A DNA stretch of 64,000 nucleotides. Origin: Haladaptatus caseinilyticus. Lineage in GTDB: Archaea; Halobacteriota; Halobacteria; Halobacteriales; Haladaptataceae. The position numbers and the translations under genes were made by a program. The DNA is taken from NCBI RefSeq assembly GCF_026248685.1, contig NZ_CP111041.1:248001-312000 (forward strand), in the 5' to 3' direction. A model generated the notes under the pieces. It was not told the DNA's origin, did no database searches, and was given only the letters and a program-made list of their open reading frames with translations. Shown in pieces: positions 7,180-54,510 of this stretch; position 1 is the stretch's first letter; every line of letters starts with the position of its first letter.

Positions 7180-7385
7180 CTCGTTTTCGTCACATCGATA
7201 CTAATTTGGAGGGCGAACCCCCTCTCACGAGCAGCGCACTATCTTCTCATGAACGCTAATATAGCATGGATACAGACGCTCTGAATCGACACAGTGAACT
7301 GTTAGAAGTAGTACCAAACTACATCTATCTGAGAGGTATCGATCGATATCTATATCATCTCACATAACGTATTAGATAGGTGATT

Positions 7386-8165
7386 ATGCCGATTAACATC
7401 ACCAGCATGCTCAAGCAAGGCTACAGCCGCAGTACCAAACGAAATGGGCTCATGCTCATGGGAATTATCTTCGTCGTTTCTGTCCTCAACGGCGTAGTAG
7501 GACTCAGTGTTGACCGATGGGTCACCAGACAGCAGTTTACACCCAGTGGTGTCCAGGCGGATCCGTCGTTGCTCGTCCCACCCCTTGGTGCGAGTATCGT
7601 CTCATTCGTGCTGGGCATCGCGTTACTGGTGGTAAGCATCGCGGCCATTCGCGTGTTCGTGAGCGATGAAACCGAACACCTTCCCCAAGAGTATTTCACT
7701 CGAAATATTGTGTGGGCAGGGGTCAATCTCTTCGTCGGGATGATTGTCTACGGAATCGTTGTCGGACTAGGCTTAGTCGCGTTGGTCGTTCCAGGTATCT
7801 TCCTGCTCGTGACGTTGGCGTTCTGGACGGTCTACGTGGCTGTCGAAGATCAGAACTTCATCACAGCGTTCCGCAGCAGTTGGAGTTTGACGCGGGGTTA
7901 CCGCCTCAACCTCTTGTTCCTGGGTGTCGCAGTCGTGCTCCTCACAGTACTCGTCAATCTGGTCTTTGGTCTCGGAGACCTGGCAAGTGGCAGCTTCGCT
8001 GGCGATATCGTCGCCTTAGTGTTCGCACAGGCTGCGAGCGCGATCACGACGGTCTTCTCGGCTGCTGTGCTCGCAACAGCCTACACTGAACTTACCTCGC
8101 GTGACGATGAGGAGTTTGGTCAGACGAGCAGTGAGGACGCCACCGCTGGACGTCCTGCCGCCTAA
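7386..8165 (+). CDS. Haloarchaeal multi-pass membrane protein of unknown function
   Basis: A 259-residue protein with about six hydrophobic segments; a GTG two codons upstream is an alternative start. It opens with a short amphipathic N-terminus (MLKQGYSRSTKRNGLMLMG), has long hydrophobic runs around residues 60-85 and 105-150, and ends with a charged, acidic tail. The WTVYVAVEDQNFITAFRSSW region resembles DUF7847-like or glycerophosphodiesterase-associated membrane domains common in haloarchaea; that link is from memory of family style and is weak. It stands alone between the transporter operon and the HTH gene. TATA-like bases (ATCTATATCATC) lie near 7345. Confidence 0.72.
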   Translation: MPINITSMLKQGYSRSTKRNGLMLMGIIFVVSVLNGVVGLSVDRWVTRQQFTPSGVQADPSLLVPPLGASIVSFVLGIALLVVSIAAIRVFVSDETEHLPQEYFTRNIVWAGVNLFVGMIVYGIVVGLGLVALVVPGIFLLVTLAFWTVYVAVEDQNFITAFRSSWSLTRGYRLNLLFLGVAVVLLTVLVNLVFGLGDLASGSFAGDIVALVFAQAASAITTVFSAAVLATAYTELTSRDDEEFGQTSSEDATAGRPAA

Positions 8166-8386
8166 CACGGCTGATTTTTGAACAGGAATAGCGCAGAACC
8201 TTCTCATTAACCAAGCCACCACCCAAGATTCACACCGTACTGCTGGTGTCGTTTGATGAGCACGGCGTATTGAACGTCCGCACAGTACTTTATGTTCTGA
8301 ATCCTGAATGTGGTAGGGGAAATCATGCTACACCTCTGTATTTAGCCCCTCTGTCTATACCCATCTAAACGAACCCAAGCAGACGA

Positions 8387-48938: not shown

Positions 48939-49646
48939 TTAAAGGCGAAACGTTTCCGGTTGCACCGTCGTTGTGACGCCATACTCCGCTTCATCGACTG
49001 ACGACGGAATCGTTCGTGTCGCATAGCGCGAGCGCAGGCTTGCTTGGACAGCGTCACGGACGCACGCCCTCGCTGCTGCCCCAATCGGCGTTCCGCTTCC
49101 AGCGAAGGTCGTCTCATCTCCGGTCGGGTCGCACGCAGCGATAACCGCGTCCGTCGTCGTGCCCGGAAACCCCGTTTCGGCGAGCAGAGTCGCAGTTTTC
49201 GCTTCGACGGCAACAGCTAGCAGGGTGGCGAGGCTTCCGTCGTCGAGGGACTGGGTCGTTCCCAAAATGATGTTCACGGTCCCGAAGTCGGACAGCTCAT
49301 TCGATGCATCAGTGAGCAACTCCGTTCCGTCGTTTGGGTCGATAGGAAGCGCCGCAGGATTCGAGATACCGGCAGTAACGACAGCTTCGACCGACTCACA
49401 TCGTGCCCCGTAAGCGTGGCAAAGGTCGACGCCGGTCAGAAGTGTCGGACCGGAATGGTCGAATCCCGCCACTGCCCGGCGTTCGTCGATGTAGGTATCC
49501 AAATCCGTTCGCTCGAACCCCTCCGGAACCGAGATATTGTAAGCGGCGTTCGCATCGGTGAATCCGCCGTTCCATCCGCTACTGAGCCATCTGGTATCGG
49601 GGCGAGCGAGTCGAAGTACGTCATTCCGGACAGTCGGCTCAAACAT
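48939..49646 (-). CDS. cbiZ: Adenosylcobinamide amidohydrolase
   Basis: From the ATG at 49646, which overlaps the cobD stop by eight bases, the product has 235 residues. It fits CbiZ: SSGWNGGFTDANAAYNISVP near residue 22, TGVDLCHAYGAR, VTAGISNPAALP, and NIILGTTQSLDDGSLATLL. CbiZ removes the aminopropanol side chain of salvaged cobinamide to give cobyric acid, which CbiB then rebuilds. Archaea use it in place of a CobU kinase for salvage. It is the last gene of the large leftward cobalamin operon. Confidence 0.95.
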   Translation of the reverse strand: MFEPTVRNDVLRLARPDTRWLSSGWNGGFTDANAAYNISVPEGFERTDLDTYIDERRAVAGFDHSGPTLLTGVDLCHAYGARCESVEAVVTAGISNPAALPIDPNDGTELLTDASNELSDFGTVNIILGTTQSLDDGSLATLLAVAVEAKTATLLAETGFPGTTTDAVIAACDPTGDETTFAGSGTPIGAAARACVRDAVQASLRSRYATRTIPSSVDEAEYGVTTTVQPETFRL

Positions 49647-50649
49647 CGTCAAGCACGTCCAAGAGTCGGTCATTTTCGTCCGGCAAGCGCACTGCCACTC
49701 GTATATGTGAATCGAGGCTTCGGAACGTCGTTGCATCGCGGACGGCGACGCTTTGCTTGTGAGCGGTCTGAACGATCTTATCGGGTTCCCGCTCACCGAC
49801 GTTCAACAACAGGAACGGAGCCTCCGAGGGATAGACATCGAACGAATCCGCGAGTGCTTCGATCATCCTGCTGCGCTCCTGCCGGACCCGTTCACGGGAC
49901 TCGGCGATAAACTCGGTACAGCCCATACTGTACGTCCCAACGGCAGTAGCGGGAGTGCCAACCGTCCACGGACGACGGACAGTTTCGAGTCGGTCCCTGA
50001 ATGAGTCTGTCGCGACCGCGAATCCAGCACGCAACCCCGGCAAGCCGAATAGCTTCGTCAACGAGCGAGCGACGACCACACCCGACCGACCTGCCATCGA
50101 CTCCAGTTCGGTGAAGCCGAGAAACGCTTCATCGACGAGCAGTGGTGTACCGACATCCCGACACCGCTCCGCAAAGTGACGGATTTCATCGGCATCGTAT
50201 GTGTCGCCAGTCGGGTTGTTCGGATTGCAGATAATGACGAGAGCGTGGTCGGTTGGATCCGTTTCGAGGATGCGGTCGTGAGGAACGAGTTTCGGGGTCG
50301 CACCTTGGAGGCGTACTTCACGATGATACTCGCCAAAACTGGGGAACGGAACGAGTACCGAATCACCCGTCGAAACTGTCGTTTCGATGGTCAGGCGAAT
50401 TGCGGCGAGACCACCCGGCGTCGGAACTACTTCCTCAGGTGTACAGCCGACATAATCCGCCGCTGCCTCACGATACTCGGGATAATCGTCCGCTGGATAC
50501 GTTCCGGATCGTCCCAGTGCATCACGATACACGGCTTCTACGCCGTTGGGTGTTCGCGGGTTGATGTTGGCACTAAAATCAAGCATTTCTGGATCGTCGG
50601 AACTTCCGTGGGGAACGCGCTCGACCGTGTCTATGGCGTCACGGTCCAT
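49639..50649 (-). CDS. cobD: L-threonine-O-3-phosphate decarboxylase, CobD type
   Basis: The 336-residue protein is a fold-type I PLP enzyme: [14 protein letters not shown] near the N-terminus, [24 protein letters not shown], and [14 protein letters not shown] with the PLP-binding Lys. CobD makes 1-aminopropan-2-yl phosphate for the nucleotide loop. HisC-like aminotransferases are close relatives; the setting inside the cobalamin operon decides for CobD. It overlaps cobT by 11 bases. Confidence 0.94.
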
Positions 50650-51640
50650 TTACGTCACCGTTGAGTCGGTTATACACTTCGATGACGCTGTCTCGGATCG
50701 AATCCATATCGACAGCTGCTCGATCAGCGAGCGCGAGCGCACCACCCATTCCAACCCCCTCTTTGCCTTCCCCTTCGATGTATCGCTGCATCGAGACGTG
50801 GTCGCCCTCGTCGAATCCCGGGTCGGTGACTTCGAGGTCGAGATCGTGCCTATCGCATGCTCGGTCGAGCGCGACCGTCTCGTCGTCGGCGACGAACGAT
50901 GTCGTCGCCAATCCAAGCGGACCGTCGATTCCGGCATGGCGAACGAGCGCCGCTGCTGCAAGCATTTGAGTCCCACCGGCGAGGGTTACGTCGATTCCGG
51001 ATTCGAGAGCACCGACTGTGAATCCCGCCACTGTCGCGAGAACGGGATCACCCATGCTGTTCACCGCGAAGACAGGGTCACCGGCTGCGTCTCCCCGGTC
51101 GATATCGCTTGCGGATAGTGCCTCCGAGACGACGGTTCGTTTGAGGCGAAGTGGGTTGTCCGGGAGTGATGACGAAACGGTGATATCTTCATCTAATGCC
51201 GTGAGAACCCCCAAAGCAGTTGTTGTCCCGCCGGGTATCGTCTCGCCGATCATGACTGAGTCGTCGGGGAGTGCCGCGCCAAATCGTCGAGTTTCTTCAT
51301 AGACCTCCTGTGCACATGGAACCGGCTCCGTCTCTCGAACGTCTTCACCTCGCTGTGCACCGACCGAAACCGTCGGGGTCCTCGTCGGGCGTATCAACCC
51401 GGCATCGATAACGGTTAGATCGAAATCGATCCGTTCCCGGACGGCACGCGTGATGACTGCGGGTGTCGGACAACCGCTTGGACTGACTGGCACGATCGGT
51501 GCCCGAACCGGTCGTCCGTATTCGACGATTTCGACGTCCGCACTGGGCGTGTGTGCCATCAGATCCGGAGCTGCACCGGCAGCACTAATCCCGTCGATTT
51601 CGGCAGTACGTGTCGCCCCCGCAGCGAGGACGAACCTCAT
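50639..51640 (-). CDS. cobT: Lower-ligand phosphoribosyltransferase, archaeal CobT type (TIGR00303-like)
   Basis: From the ATG at 51640 the product has 333 residues; the frame upstream of it lies within cobY and was rejected. Characteristic parts are [20 protein letters not shown] at the front, [36 protein letters not shown] and [15 protein letters not shown] near the end. CobT transfers phosphoribose from nicotinate mononucleotide to dimethylbenzimidazole, making alpha-ribazole phosphate. Its start overlaps the cobY stop (ATGA). Confidence 0.94.
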
Positions 51641-52197
51641 ATGAATGCCTCCGCCACGGCCGCGTCGGTCTGTCGGTTCACGTTGACAGCGAGACGTGCA
51701 TCGTAAGTAATATACGTGGTTTCGGCATCGCCGTTGCCCACGACGTTGAGGCCTGTCGGAGCAAGTTCCCGTCCTTCGTGCTCGAACGTCGTGTCGGTTC
51801 CCACTCCCAACTGCTGCTTGAGGGCGACGGGTGCACAGACCGTGAGCGAACCACGGTCGTGTTCGGAAAGGATGCGATCGATACATACCCCATCAAGGAG
51901 CGGGAGGTCCGACACAACGGTGAGAACCGGTAATTCGACTCGTTCGAGTGCGTACGAGAGGTCTTCGACGTATCCGTCACCGGGTGCGTCGATAATGGAG
52001 AGCGCACGGGAGTCGAGATGACGCCTGGTTGCCGGAGTATGTGGAGAGACGACTGCATGAACAGTATCAATTCGGCTCTCGGCGAGAGCGGCGCAGACGT
52101 GGTCTCCCATCGGGGAACCGTCGATTTCGAACAGGGGCTTCTCGACTGATGCGGCGAGTCGCGTTCCTTTGCCACCACACATCAAAAGAGCGTCCAC
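51637..52197 (-). CDS. cobY: GTP:adenosylcobinamide-phosphate guanylyltransferase, CobY
   Basis: The 186-residue protein starts at a GTG. It has the nucleotidyltransferase signature [11 protein letters not shown] followed by [11 protein letters not shown], and the metal Asp in [10 protein letters not shown]. CobY is the archaeal non-orthologous replacement of CobU and gives AdoCbi-GDP. It overlaps cobS by 16 bases at its start and cobT by four at its end. Confidence 0.94.
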
Positions 52198-52922
52198 GTG
52201 ACCACCCCCATCTGAAGTGCGATCAGTCGGGAGAGTTCGTTTGTAGCCCCGAATACGTCACCGCTGACACCGCCGAGCCACGACCGCGCCCACTGACCGA
52301 CGACGGCAGTAGTGAGCAGACTGGCACTCATCATTACGATACCCACCAGTGGGGACCCCGAAAAAGCTAGCGCTGGAACCGAGACGATGACCGCGATAAC
52401 AAATCCCCGTGGAGTCTGGTCCAGTAGTTGTGACCCCAGTCCCTCGTGTGCGGGCGATCCGAACGCGGCCAATCCCGCCATCCCCAGTTTCGCGCTCACT
52501 TCCGCGGTGACCACGATGACGACGATGGCTTCGAGTGGAAGCCCGACTAACCCGACCGCGGCAAGCGAAAGTCCAGCGATGAGGAGGGCGACGGCGAGTA
52601 GGGCACCGACACCGACATCCGTATCTTTCATCACCGCATGGCGTTTCTCCGCACCGTGTACTGCGGCTGCGTCACCGAGGTCGGCCAGTCCGTCGACGTG
52701 ATTGATGCCTGTAACCCCATACACGGTCGCGAGGAACAATGTGGCATTGATGGACGCGGGAAGGGGGAGCAAGAGCGGAACGGCAAGGAACACCCCGATA
52801 ACATATCCCGCCAAGGGAAATGCAATCGAACTGCGTCGAAACGCCTCCCATGCACTTTCGTCGTGTCCTACCGGAAGCCGGCTCAAAAATCCGAGCGCAC
52901 CGCGAACCGCCGTTAGAACCAT
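52182..52922 (-). CDS. cobS: Adenosylcobinamide-GDP ribazoletransferase (cobalamin synthase)
   Basis: The 246-residue integral membrane protein has about six hydrophobic segments and the CobS motifs GALGFLSRLPVGHDESAW at the start and NHVDGLADLGDAAAVHGAEK, in which the Asp cluster binds magnesium. It joins AdoCbi-GDP to alpha-ribazole phosphate. It overlaps cbiB by ten bases. Confidence 0.95.
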   Translation of the reverse strand: MVLTAVRGALGFLSRLPVGHDESAWEAFRRSSIAFPLAGYVIGVFLAVPLLLPLPASINATLFLATVYGVTGINHVDGLADLGDAAAVHGAEKRHAVMKDTDVGVGALLAVALLIAGLSLAAVGLVGLPLEAIVVIVVTAEVSAKLGMAGLAAFGSPAHEGLGSQLLDQTPRGFVIAVIVSVPALAFSGSPLVGIVMMSASLLTTAVVGQWARSWLGGVSGDVFGATNELSRLIALQMGVVTWTLF

Positions 52923-53815
52923 GCAATCACCGCCGTGAGGATGTACGCGAGAAAGCTCGCCCGTCGAACGATACGCACTCCTTTTCCCACATCAGCAGTG
53001 GCCGGGAGCTGTGCCCGGGGATTGAGCGTGTAAACGCCCGACTTTTCGAAACGGGTGTCGAGTGCCGCAGCGAGGGTCGCCATCGGCCAGCCGGAGTTCG
53101 GCGAGGGGGGTTCGTGGGCCCACGAACGGGCATCTGAAAGGTAACCCGTTCCGAGACTGACGACCGCGATGAGTACGGCACTGATTCGTGCTGGAATCCA
53201 CATCACCGCATCGTCGAGTCTTGCGCTCGCCCACCCGACAGGTTTCGACCGATAGCCCAACATGGAGTCGAGCGTGTTGATTGCCTTGACCCACGTTGCC
53301 GCAGCGGCGGCCAACGGAAGCGAAATGGGTGCACAGATGGCGAAGGCAAACAGAGGTGCAACGAGGCCATCGGCCAAATTCTCGGAAAGGCTTTCAGCGA
53401 CTGCGCTTCGAATTTCTCCCGGCGAGAGTGATGATGCGTCGCGACCCGCAAGCGCTCGTACCTCCTTCCGAGCGGTCACGATATTCGTCTCGGTCAATTC
53501 CGTCACGTCCGTCGCAGTTTCGAGAAGCATTCGTAGGCTCGTCGTCGTGAACAGTACGATGCCAGCGAAAACGGAAGCAACGAGGGGGTGCACTGTAAGG
53601 GCTATCTGAACCACGATACCGATACCGATAGCAGCTATCGCAGGCAAACCTAACGCGATTAGCAGGCCAGTCTGTCGAGGGGCCGACCATTCGCGGTCAG
53701 TCACAGCGATCATTTTCCCAAACCAGACGACAGGATGCACCCGCGTCGGTGGTTCCTTGAAGAACCAATCTAACAAGAACGCGATCGCAACCGAAAGAAC
53801 GCCATAGAAAGTCAT
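52913..53815 (-). CDS. cbiB: Adenosylcobinamide-phosphate synthase, CbiB
   Basis: From the ATG at 53815 the product has 300 residues with several membrane helices. Family features are LDWFFKEPPTRVHPVVWFGK near the N-terminus, ALAGRDASSLSPGEIRSAVA, ESLSENLADGLVAPLFAFAI, and a C-terminal PNSGWPMATLAAALDTR. CbiB couples cobyric acid with aminopropanol phosphate. The start overlaps the HAD gene stop (ATGA). An in-frame start three codons upstream is possible. Confidence 0.95.
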   Translation of the reverse strand: MTFYGVLSVAIAFLLDWFFKEPPTRVHPVVWFGKMIAVTDREWSAPRQTGLLIALGLPAIAAIGIGIVVQIALTVHPLVASVFAGIVLFTTTSLRMLLETATDVTELTETNIVTARKEVRALAGRDASSLSPGEIRSAVAESLSENLADGLVAPLFAFAICAPISLPLAAAAATWVKAINTLDSMLGYRSKPVGWASARLDDAVMWIPARISAVLIAVVSLGTGYLSDARSWAHEPPSPNSGWPMATLAAALDTRFEKSGVYTLNPRAQLPATADVGKGVRIVRRASFLAYILTAVIAWF

Positions 53816-54510
53816 TCGGAGCACTCCATTTCCCTCGAAACGTCGCTCAGCGTACTATCATCGAGTAGAATCGCGGTGGCCCCCGCGTCGGTTGCCCCAC
53901 CATCCGTTTCTGGATCGTCACCGATGTGCGTGAGTTCCGAAAGTGGAACGCCGAGTCGATCAGAGATTTCGCGAAACGCACGCACATCCGGTTTCCTCCA
54001 TCCACACTCGACACTACTGACGACTGCATCGAAGGCATCCGGATCAAGCCCCGACTGGGAAAGGGTACGTTGTACGAGTCCCGGGACACTACAATTCGAG
54101 AGAATCCCGATCGGTCCACACCGTTCAGCGACGGTAACAGCAGTGTGTGCCCCCTCCCGAGTCCGAATCGGGGTGTCGAACGCATCGAGGAGTGCCGCTC
54201 GAACGACGGGGCGTGAGACGTCTCTGTCGCGACTCTCTAGTCCCGTTTTCACGTGGTCGACAAGCGAGAGTTCTGCACCCGGGGGAACATCGAGATGAGG
54301 GGTTGTATAGACATGCTCCCAGTCAGACGGGACGGAAACAGCTCGCTCGGAGAGTGCAGTCGCAACAGCCCCCGCAGGGTGATCTGGCGGTGCGACTTCG
54401 ACGAGCGTACCGAAGAGGTCGAACGAAACTGCCACGACTGAACGATATGGAGACCATCTATTTGAATGCGGAGGAACTCCCCCGACTTTGAGAACACCTC
54501 GATCGGTCAT
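53812..54510 (-). CDS. HAD-superfamily phosphatase heading the cobalamin operon
   Basis: Up to 232 residues from the ATG at 54510; the HAD core begins near residue 26 with VSFDLFGTLVEV (nucleophile Asp), and a GTG at 54435 could be the real start. Later motifs are GILSNCSVPGLVQRTLSQSG, WRKPDVRAFREI with the Lys, and THIGDDPETDGGATDAGATA with the metal Asp pair. It is a cytoplasmic phosphohydrolase. Its stop overlaps the cbiB start, tying it to cobalamin synthesis. A plausible role is removal of the phosphate from alpha-ribazole phosphate or cobalamin phosphate, which lacks an obvious CobC or CobZ here; that is inference. Confidence 0.88.
   Translation of the reverse strand: MTDRGVLKVGGVPPHSNRWSPYRSVVAVSFDLFGTLVEVAPPDHPAGAVATALSERAVSVPSDWEHVYTTPHLDVPPGAELSLVDHVKTGLESRDRDVSRPVVRAALLDAFDTPIRTREGAHTAVTVAERCGPIGILSNCSVPGLVQRTLSQSGLDPDAFDAVVSSVECGWRKPDVRAFREISDRLGVPLSELTHIGDDPETDGGATDAGATAILLDDSTLSDVSREMECSE

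What the first reader, a model, noticed from the sequence alone, without database searches (positions are those of the whole stretch)
53812..54510. HAD phosphatase may fill the last missing step of cobalamin synthesis
A HAD-family phosphatase gene heads the operon HAD-cbiB-cobS-cobY-cobT-cobD-cbiZ and its stop overlaps the cbiB ATG. The six enzymes behind it account for the nucleotide-loop steps, but no CobC or CobZ phosphatase is visible. The HAD protein has all catalytic motifs and is therefore a good candidate for removing the phosphate of alpha-ribazole phosphate or adenosylcobalamin phosphate.
Basis: inference. Interest (0 to 1): 0.6.

Follow-up and report, generated by a model that had tools for sequence, protein, structure and literature searches.

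The report
Haloarchaeal vitamin-B12 operon phosphatase candidate
The first gene of a salt-loving archaeon's vitamin B12 finishing operon encodes a HAD-type enzyme that probably removes the last phosphate; this was already proposed in print but never tested as far as found, and the enzyme lacks one residue that such phosphatases normally use.

Summary
A HAD-family gene heads HAD-cbiB-cobS-cobY-cobT-cobD-cbiZ in a Haladaptatus genome, with an ATGA overlap into cbiB. The genome has no CobZ-type (PF04608) or CobC-type (PF00300) match. Two details are wrong: the start is very probably GTG 54435 (207 aa), and the catalytic set is incomplete. The usual general acid/base Asp (nucleophile+2) is Phe, in 84 of 84 orthologues.

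The idea is not new. The gene at the same operon position in Haloferax volcanii, HVO_0586, is listed as a predicted EC 3.1.3.73 enzyme (PMC8305020), credited to Rodionov 2003. No test of it was found.

My evidence supports the prediction. In 118 relatives, HAD and CobS co-occur in 79 genomes (3 HAD only, 9 CobS only, 27 neither), and 76 of 79 are linked to cbiB. Across 392 genomes of the phylum, the HAD was found only in Halobacteriales, where CobZ was not. Most copies in CobS-less genomes are eroded or broken. AsDMS shows that a HAD lacking Asp+2 can hydrolyse phosphomonoesters.

Against it: 9 CobS-positive genomes lack the HAD, and substrate and activity are unproven. Best reading: AdoCbl-5'-phosphate phosphatase, about 0.6.

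The parts
53812..54435 (-). Positions counted from ATG 54510: D31 nucleophile, F33 in place of the acid/base Asp, T35, S138-N139, K173, D198-D199, D203
   Evidence: PF00702; start from orthologue starts, in-frame stops and conserved upstream box; residues
54461..54466 (-). TTCAAA, likely TATA box of a (near-)leaderless promoter, about 31 nt upstream of the GTG
   Evidence: Read in the sequence; TTCAAA/TTCAAG at the corresponding place in most orthologous loci listed; function inferred
52913..53815 (-). cbiB, adenosylcobinamide-phosphate synthase; ATG overlaps the HAD stop (ATGA)
   Evidence: PF03186 3e-73; TIGR00380 over cut-off; overlap read
52182..52922 (-). cobS, cobamide-5'-phosphate synthase
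   Evidence: PF02654 2e-38; TIGR00317 over cut-off
51637..52197 (-). cobY-like AdoCbi-P guanylyltransferase
   Evidence: PF12804; TIGR00454 5e-36 and NF045495 2e-30, both below their cut-offs
50639..51640 (-). cobT, archaeal-type NaMN:base phosphoribosyltransferase (start corrected to ATG 51640)
   Evidence: TIGR00303 3e-72, over cut-off
49639..50649 (-). cobD, L-threonine-O-3-phosphate decarboxylase, 336 aa
   Evidence: TIGR01140 7.5e-85, 285 bits against a cut-off of 290.6
48939..49646 (-). cbiZ, adenosylcobinamide amidohydrolase, last gene of the operon; no CobZ domain attached
   Evidence: PF01955 4e-42; matches only positions 10-195 of the 335-position CbiS model

Best explanation
The HAD protein is the haloarchaeal replacement for CobC/CobZ: a Mg2+-dependent phosphohydrolase that works on the CobS product. 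D31 attacks the phosphate of adenosylcobalamin-5'-phosphate (or, less likely, alpha-ribazole-5'-phosphate) and forms an aspartyl-phosphate. S138, N139 and K173 hold the phosphate; D198, D199 and the backbone carbonyl of residue 33 hold Mg2+; water releases phosphate and adenosylcobalamin. It does this without the usual general-acid Asp, as the HAD domain of AsDMS does. It is made together with CbiB and CobS and may sit with these membrane enzymes. Shown here: operon position, co-occurrence, motif set, predicted fold, decay in most genomes that lost the pathway. Inferred: substrate, chemistry and complex.
For: Gap: no PF04608 or PF00300 in the genome, although CobS should yield a phosphorylated product needing a phosphatase (PMC8749415 passages). 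Co-occurrence over 118 relatives: 79 both, 3 HAD only, 9 CobS only, 27 neither. 76 of 79 lie directly upstream of cbiB (75, plus the window). Complementarity over 392 genomes of the phylum: HAD profile in 71, all Halobacteriales; PF04608 over cut-off in 200, none of them Halobacteriales; CobS in 368. Decay: G015 (no CobS) lost D31, K173, D198, D203; G016 and G020 (no CobS) are the only 2 of 84 with R172 and S166 changed. All three sit beside the same peptidase gene as intact operons in that genus. G326 (no CobS) has a broken copy, and the extra unlinked copy in G409 lacks D31. Precedent: the AsDMS HAD domain (D43-L44-G45, N139, K171, D195, D196) hydrolyses a phosphomonoester without Asp+2 (PMC12365925 section 10).
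Against: Nine of 88 CobS-positive relatives (G030, G032, G039, G059, G064, G077, G091, G096, G105) have no HAD orthologue. Four of these nine also have no PF04608 and no PF00300 match, so another phosphatase must exist and could also serve here. Three genomes (G031, G068, G076) carry HAD and operon far apart. G439 has no CobS match but keeps an apparently intact HAD. Asp+2 is missing. PF00300 enzymes occur in 28 of the 79 HAD+CobS+ genomes, so the HAD is not always the only candidate. The selection test gives only a modest signal. HAD enzymes are promiscuous, and linkage does not name the substrate.
Confidence: 0.62

Rival explanations
1. The HAD belongs to the same pathway but does another phosphate job: for example clearing aminopropanol phosphate or AdoCbi-P, or a phosphotransfer filling the second open gap, L-threonine kinase (EC 2.7.1.177). 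A HAD without Asp+2 could in principle act as a phosphotransferase.
For: It is coupled to cbiB rather than cobS. The L-threonine kinase gap is also open in haloarchaea (PMC8305020 table). Asp+2 is absent.
Against: A kinase would need a nucleotide-binding feature; none was sought or seen. The HAD is absent from 9 CobS-positive genomes. Close structural relatives with names are mostly hydrolases and phosphatases.
Confidence: 0.17
2. The HAD is a general or damage-control phosphatase that rides in the operon; the last step is done by another, unidentified enzyme also present in the HAD-less genomes.
For: 9 of 88 CobS-positive genomes lack it; 4 of these lack PF04608 and PF00300 too. G439 keeps an intact copy without a CobS match.
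Against: 76 of 79 linkage, and erosion or breakage of copies in CobS-less genomes.
Confidence: 0.16
3. It is a dehalogenase-like hydrolase, not a phosphatase, because motif I (DLFGT) resembles the DxYGT of 2-haloacid dehalogenases.
For: Phe at +2 in 84 of 84; dehalogenases among sequence and structure matches. The DxYGT pattern is recalled.
Against: Motif IV keeps the Mg2+-binding Asp residues D198 and D203 in nearly all (83 and 82 of 84). Dehalogenases are recalled to be Mg2+-independent and to lack them. A dehalogenase has no place in this operon.
Confidence: 0.04

Closest known systems
HVO_0586 / VNG_1577C (HSL01294), predicted EC 3.1.3.73 in haloarchaea (Rodionov 2003; Pfeiffer and Dyall-Smith 2021, PMC8305020)
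   Same: Same position before cbiB in the same gene order (HVO_0586 to HVO_0592); same proposed role
   Different: Only a table entry and a prediction; passages read give no catalytic residues and no test. That HVO_0586 is a HAD was inferred from position, not checked by sequence
CobZ (PF04608-type) of methanogens, and the CbiS fusion
   Same: Fills the same pathway step (recalled, and the NCBIfam CbiS title); in some phylum genomes it lies next to cobS, as coordinates show (e.g. G449)
   Different: Unrelated family; no match over cut-off in any Halobacteriales genome searched
CobC of enteric bacteria (histidine phosphatase, PF00300)
   Same: Same step; purified CobC associates with CobS in liposomes (PMC8749415 passages)
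   Different: Unrelated fold and mechanism (recalled); no match in this genome
AsDMS HAD domain and YihX
   Same: HAD phosphatases; AsDMS lacks Asp+2 (D43-L44-G45) and relies on S138, N139, K171, D195, D196, the counterparts of S138, N139, K173, D198, D199 here (correspondence by motif is my inference)
   Different: Terpenyl or glucose-1-phosphate substrates; Gly rather than Phe at +2 in AsDMS; no cobamide link
PH0459 (1x42), Thermococcus onnurineus HAD phosphatase (4ygq), HDHD3 (3k1z)
   Same: Among the closest solved folds or sequences; PH0459 also lacks Asp+2 (FDFVGTL)
   Different: About 20% identity; physiological roles not established in anything read here

Membership tests
Canonical HAD phosphatase (C1 cap) | Motif I DxDx(T/V) with nucleophile and acid/base Asp | tested here: not met
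   Motif I is DLFGT; Phe at +2 in 84 of 84. Definition from PMC8069645 passages
Canonical HAD phosphatase (C1 cap) | Motifs II (S/T), III (K), IV (acidic, Mg2+) | tested here: met
   S138 84/84, K173 83/84, D198 83/84, D203 82/84
HAD superfamily | HAD Rossmann-like fold | tested here: met
   PF00702 over cut-off; model pLDDT 92.4; best VIA-align Z 20.3, rmsd 3.8, 191 aligned, to 4ygq
CobZ (PF04608) | PgpA-like domain | tested here: not met
   No Pfam match of the HAD to it; none in the genome
CobC (PF00300) | Histidine phosphatase domain | tested here: not met
   No match of the HAD; none in the genome
AdoCbl-5'-P / alpha-RP phosphatase (EC 3.1.3.73) by function | Hydrolysis of AdoCbl-5'-P or alpha-RP | not testable with these tools
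   Needs an enzyme assay or mutant
AdoCbl-5'-P / alpha-RP phosphatase (EC 3.1.3.73) by function | Present whenever CobS is present and no CobC/CobZ is | tested here: not met
   4 of 88 CobS-positive relatives have none of HAD, PF04608, PF00300: G030, G039, G064, G096

The most novel reading that the evidence does not exclude
A third, unrelated class of cobamide-phosphate phosphatase, after CobC and CobZ: a Halobacteriales-specific HAD that works without the general-acid Asp, replaced CobZ in the haloarchaeal lineage and is translationally coupled to the membrane enzymes CbiB and CobS. R172, S166 and E80, altered together in two CobS-less genomes, would be parts of its cobamide-phosphate site.
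Probability: 0.5. Interest if true: 0.55.

Novelty: already known. Interest (0 to 1): 0.38.

Why it matters
If right, it closes the last phosphatase gap in haloarchaeal B12 synthesis, predicted but open since 2003, with one assay or one gene deletion. It would show that this step has been solved by three unrelated enzyme families, and give another HAD phosphatase that works without its textbook general acid. If wrong, the nine HAD-less genomes show where to look for the real enzyme.

Tried and rejected
Checked and set aside: (1) a substitute phosphatase in the HAD's place. In six loci (L036, L037, L038, L042 and L044, from genomes without a HAD orthologue; L050, where the HAD lies elsewhere) I saw cobB/cbiA-like, BtuF/BtuC/BtuD-like or unrelated ORFs upstream of cbiB. 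Nine HAD-less loci were listed with flanks. Names were given by eye from translations, not by profile, so a missed gene is possible. (2) PF00300 as the general substitute: found in 5 of 9 HAD-less genomes, all one genus, but also in 28 of 79 HAD+CobS+ genomes and 6 without CobS. (3) Papers: four-term search, none; locus tags, only PMC8305020; two broader searches, listings only; 'Asp+2', none. Rodionov 2003 is not held, so its content is known to me only through PMC8305020. The Halonotius paper had none of the six terms. (4) Whole-genome scripting: not available.

Weak results kept: the pN/pS comparison. The HAD/PepQ ratio was 2.65 for the CobS-less pair L047-L048, 1.0-1.6 for the six pairs among four operon-bearing loci, 1.7-2.2 for pairs with L046 and about 1.5-2.4 for the other mixed pairs. 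All HAD values stay below 0.5, and only seven loci of one genus were used.

Dropped rows: nine duplicate loci (L001, L002, L005-L010, L034) were left out of the 84-sequence set. These and L003, L004 were left out of the linkage count. Structure alignment A1 used 53 sequences. L101 (G106) has a copy lacking much of the cap, perhaps an assembly fault; it counts as HAD+.

Full report
WHAT IS THERE. The window lies in a Haladaptatus-like genome (4,818,353 bases, 7 contigs; closest named relative Haladaptatus litoreus, 87% over the HAD). On the minus strand a HAD-family gene is followed by cbiB, cobS, a cobY-like gene, cobT, cobD and cbiZ. The HAD stop and the cbiB start share ATGA, and the following genes also overlap, so one transcript is very likely. 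Plasmid orthologues are annotated only as 'HAD family hydrolase'.

TWO CORRECTIONS. First, the start. In orthologous loci a GTG or ATG lies four codons before the motif-I Phe in most cases, several have in-frame stops a few codons further up (L105 of the same genus seven codons before Phe; many others twelve), and a TTCAAG or TTCAAA box stands at a fixed distance upstream in many loci across families. The start is therefore very probably GTG 54435 and the protein has 207 aa; the low model confidence of residues 1-20 agrees. Second, the active site. In 84 orthologues D31 is kept in 83, T35 and S138 in 84, N139, K173 and D198 in 83, but the residue two after the nucleophile is Phe in all 84. In ordinary HAD phosphatases that residue is the general acid/base Asp (PMC8069645, passages).

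DOES THAT EXCLUDE A PHOSPHATASE? No. The HAD domain of the drimenol synthase AsDMS has D43-L44-G45, binds its metal with D43, D195, D196 and the carbonyl of G45, needs D43, G45, N139, K171, D195 and D196, and hydrolyses its monophosphate intermediate with kcat 0.56 per second (PMC12365925, section 10 read). S138, N139, K173, D198 and D199 here correspond to its set (my alignment by motif, inference). The solved relative PH0459 has FDFVGTL, also without Asp+2. The model (mean pLDDT 92.4) is a HAD fold with a small helical cap; best VIA-align match 4ygq, Z 20.3, rmsd 3.8 over 191 residues. A shared fold shows no function.

IS THE STEP MISSING? CobS should make AdoCbl-5'-phosphate, which needs a phosphatase (PMC8749415, passages). 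The genome has no PF04608 (CobZ type) and no PF00300 (CobC type) match.

CO-OCCURRENCE. In 118 relatives, 82 have a HAD orthologue (best E 5.3e-22 or better), 89 have CbiB and 88 have CobS: 79 HAD and CobS, 3 HAD only, 9 CobS only, 27 neither. Of the 79, 76 have the HAD directly upstream of cbiB on the same strand: 75 of 81 loci examined, plus the window; G031, G068 and G076 do not. In 392 genomes across the phylum the HAD profile (E 1e-20 or better) is found in 71, all Halobacteriales; CobS in 368, of which I count 75 in Halobacteriales, 69 of these with HAD; PF04608 over cut-off in 200, none of them Halobacteriales (one weak sub-threshold match, G038). So CobZ and this HAD exclude one another by lineage, though other phylum genomes have CobS and neither.

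WHAT HAPPENS WHEN THE PATHWAY IS LOST. Three genomes in the window's family have the HAD but no CobS or CbiB match. In all three the HAD sits downstream of the same peptidase gene that precedes intact operons in that genus, so the rest of the operon was probably lost in place. In G015 the HAD lost D31, K173, D198 and D203; in G016 and G020 R172 and S166 are changed, and in no other of the 84 (E80 is also changed there, and in one other, L096). G016 and G020 look like sisters (peptidase 95.5% identical), so this is probably one event. In the phylum set, G326 (no CobS) has a copy broken by a frame change and a deletion, while G439 (no CobS) keeps an apparently intact one; G409 has, besides an intact copy, a second one next to the peptidase gene that lacks D31. 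A pN/pS comparison with the peptidase gene shows modest relaxation.

RESULTS AGAINST. Nine CobS-positive relatives have no HAD orthologue, and I saw no obvious substitute near their clusters (by eye). PF00300 occurs in 5 of these 9, but also in 28 of the 79 with HAD and CobS. Four of the nine have none of the three families. The HAD is therefore not the only way haloarchaea finish cobamides, or those four carry an unknown enzyme.

PRIOR KNOWLEDGE. Pfeiffer and Dyall-Smith 2021 (PMC8305020; passages and table rows read) list HVO_0586, directly before cbiB HVO_0587, as predicted EC 3.1.3.73, credited to Rodionov and others 2003 for HSL01294 (VNG_1577C), and note that CobC has no haloarchaeal homologue. 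The gene order HVO_0586 to HVO_0592 equals that of the window. The 2003 paper was not held. No experimental test appeared in the searches made (listings only). The novelty rating refers to the idea; a proven Asp+2-less HAD of this function would be a new variant of a known kind.

VERDICT. A well-placed and already published prediction, here strengthened by distribution and decay evidence and qualified by the missing Asp+2. I give 0.62 to the AdoCbl-5'-P/alpha-RP phosphatase role; AdoCbl-5'-P is preferred because its dephosphorylation is described as the last step (PMC8749415).

Noticed in passing
window 54420-54470 (-) and orthologous loci: DNA just upstream of the HAD start is unusually conserved; many loci show TTGCACTAA-N8-TAGTGGCAG or close variants, an imperfect palindrome overlapping the GTG start, possibly an operator. 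The window itself has a different spacer.
   Followed up: partly
window 48939-54435; G001, G003, G005: In Haladaptatus the HAD-cbiB pair is on plasmid records in three named species, and 3 of 9 genus members searched (own genome included) lack a HAD orthologue, CbiB and CobS altogether.
   Followed up: partly
L142 (G409) 7700-8290 and L046 (G015) 7385-7990: Two HAD copies from different families both read FALFDTL (nucleophile D to A) and both also lost D198, beside the same peptidase gene; parallel decay or a kept dead copy.
   Followed up: partly
window 49639-50649 (-): CobD is 336 aa; the L-threonine kinase step (EC 2.7.1.177) is still listed as a gap in haloarchaea (PMC8305020).
   Followed up: no
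L077 and L102 (G084): One genome carries two cob clusters, one with the HAD before cbiB and one without it.
   Followed up: no
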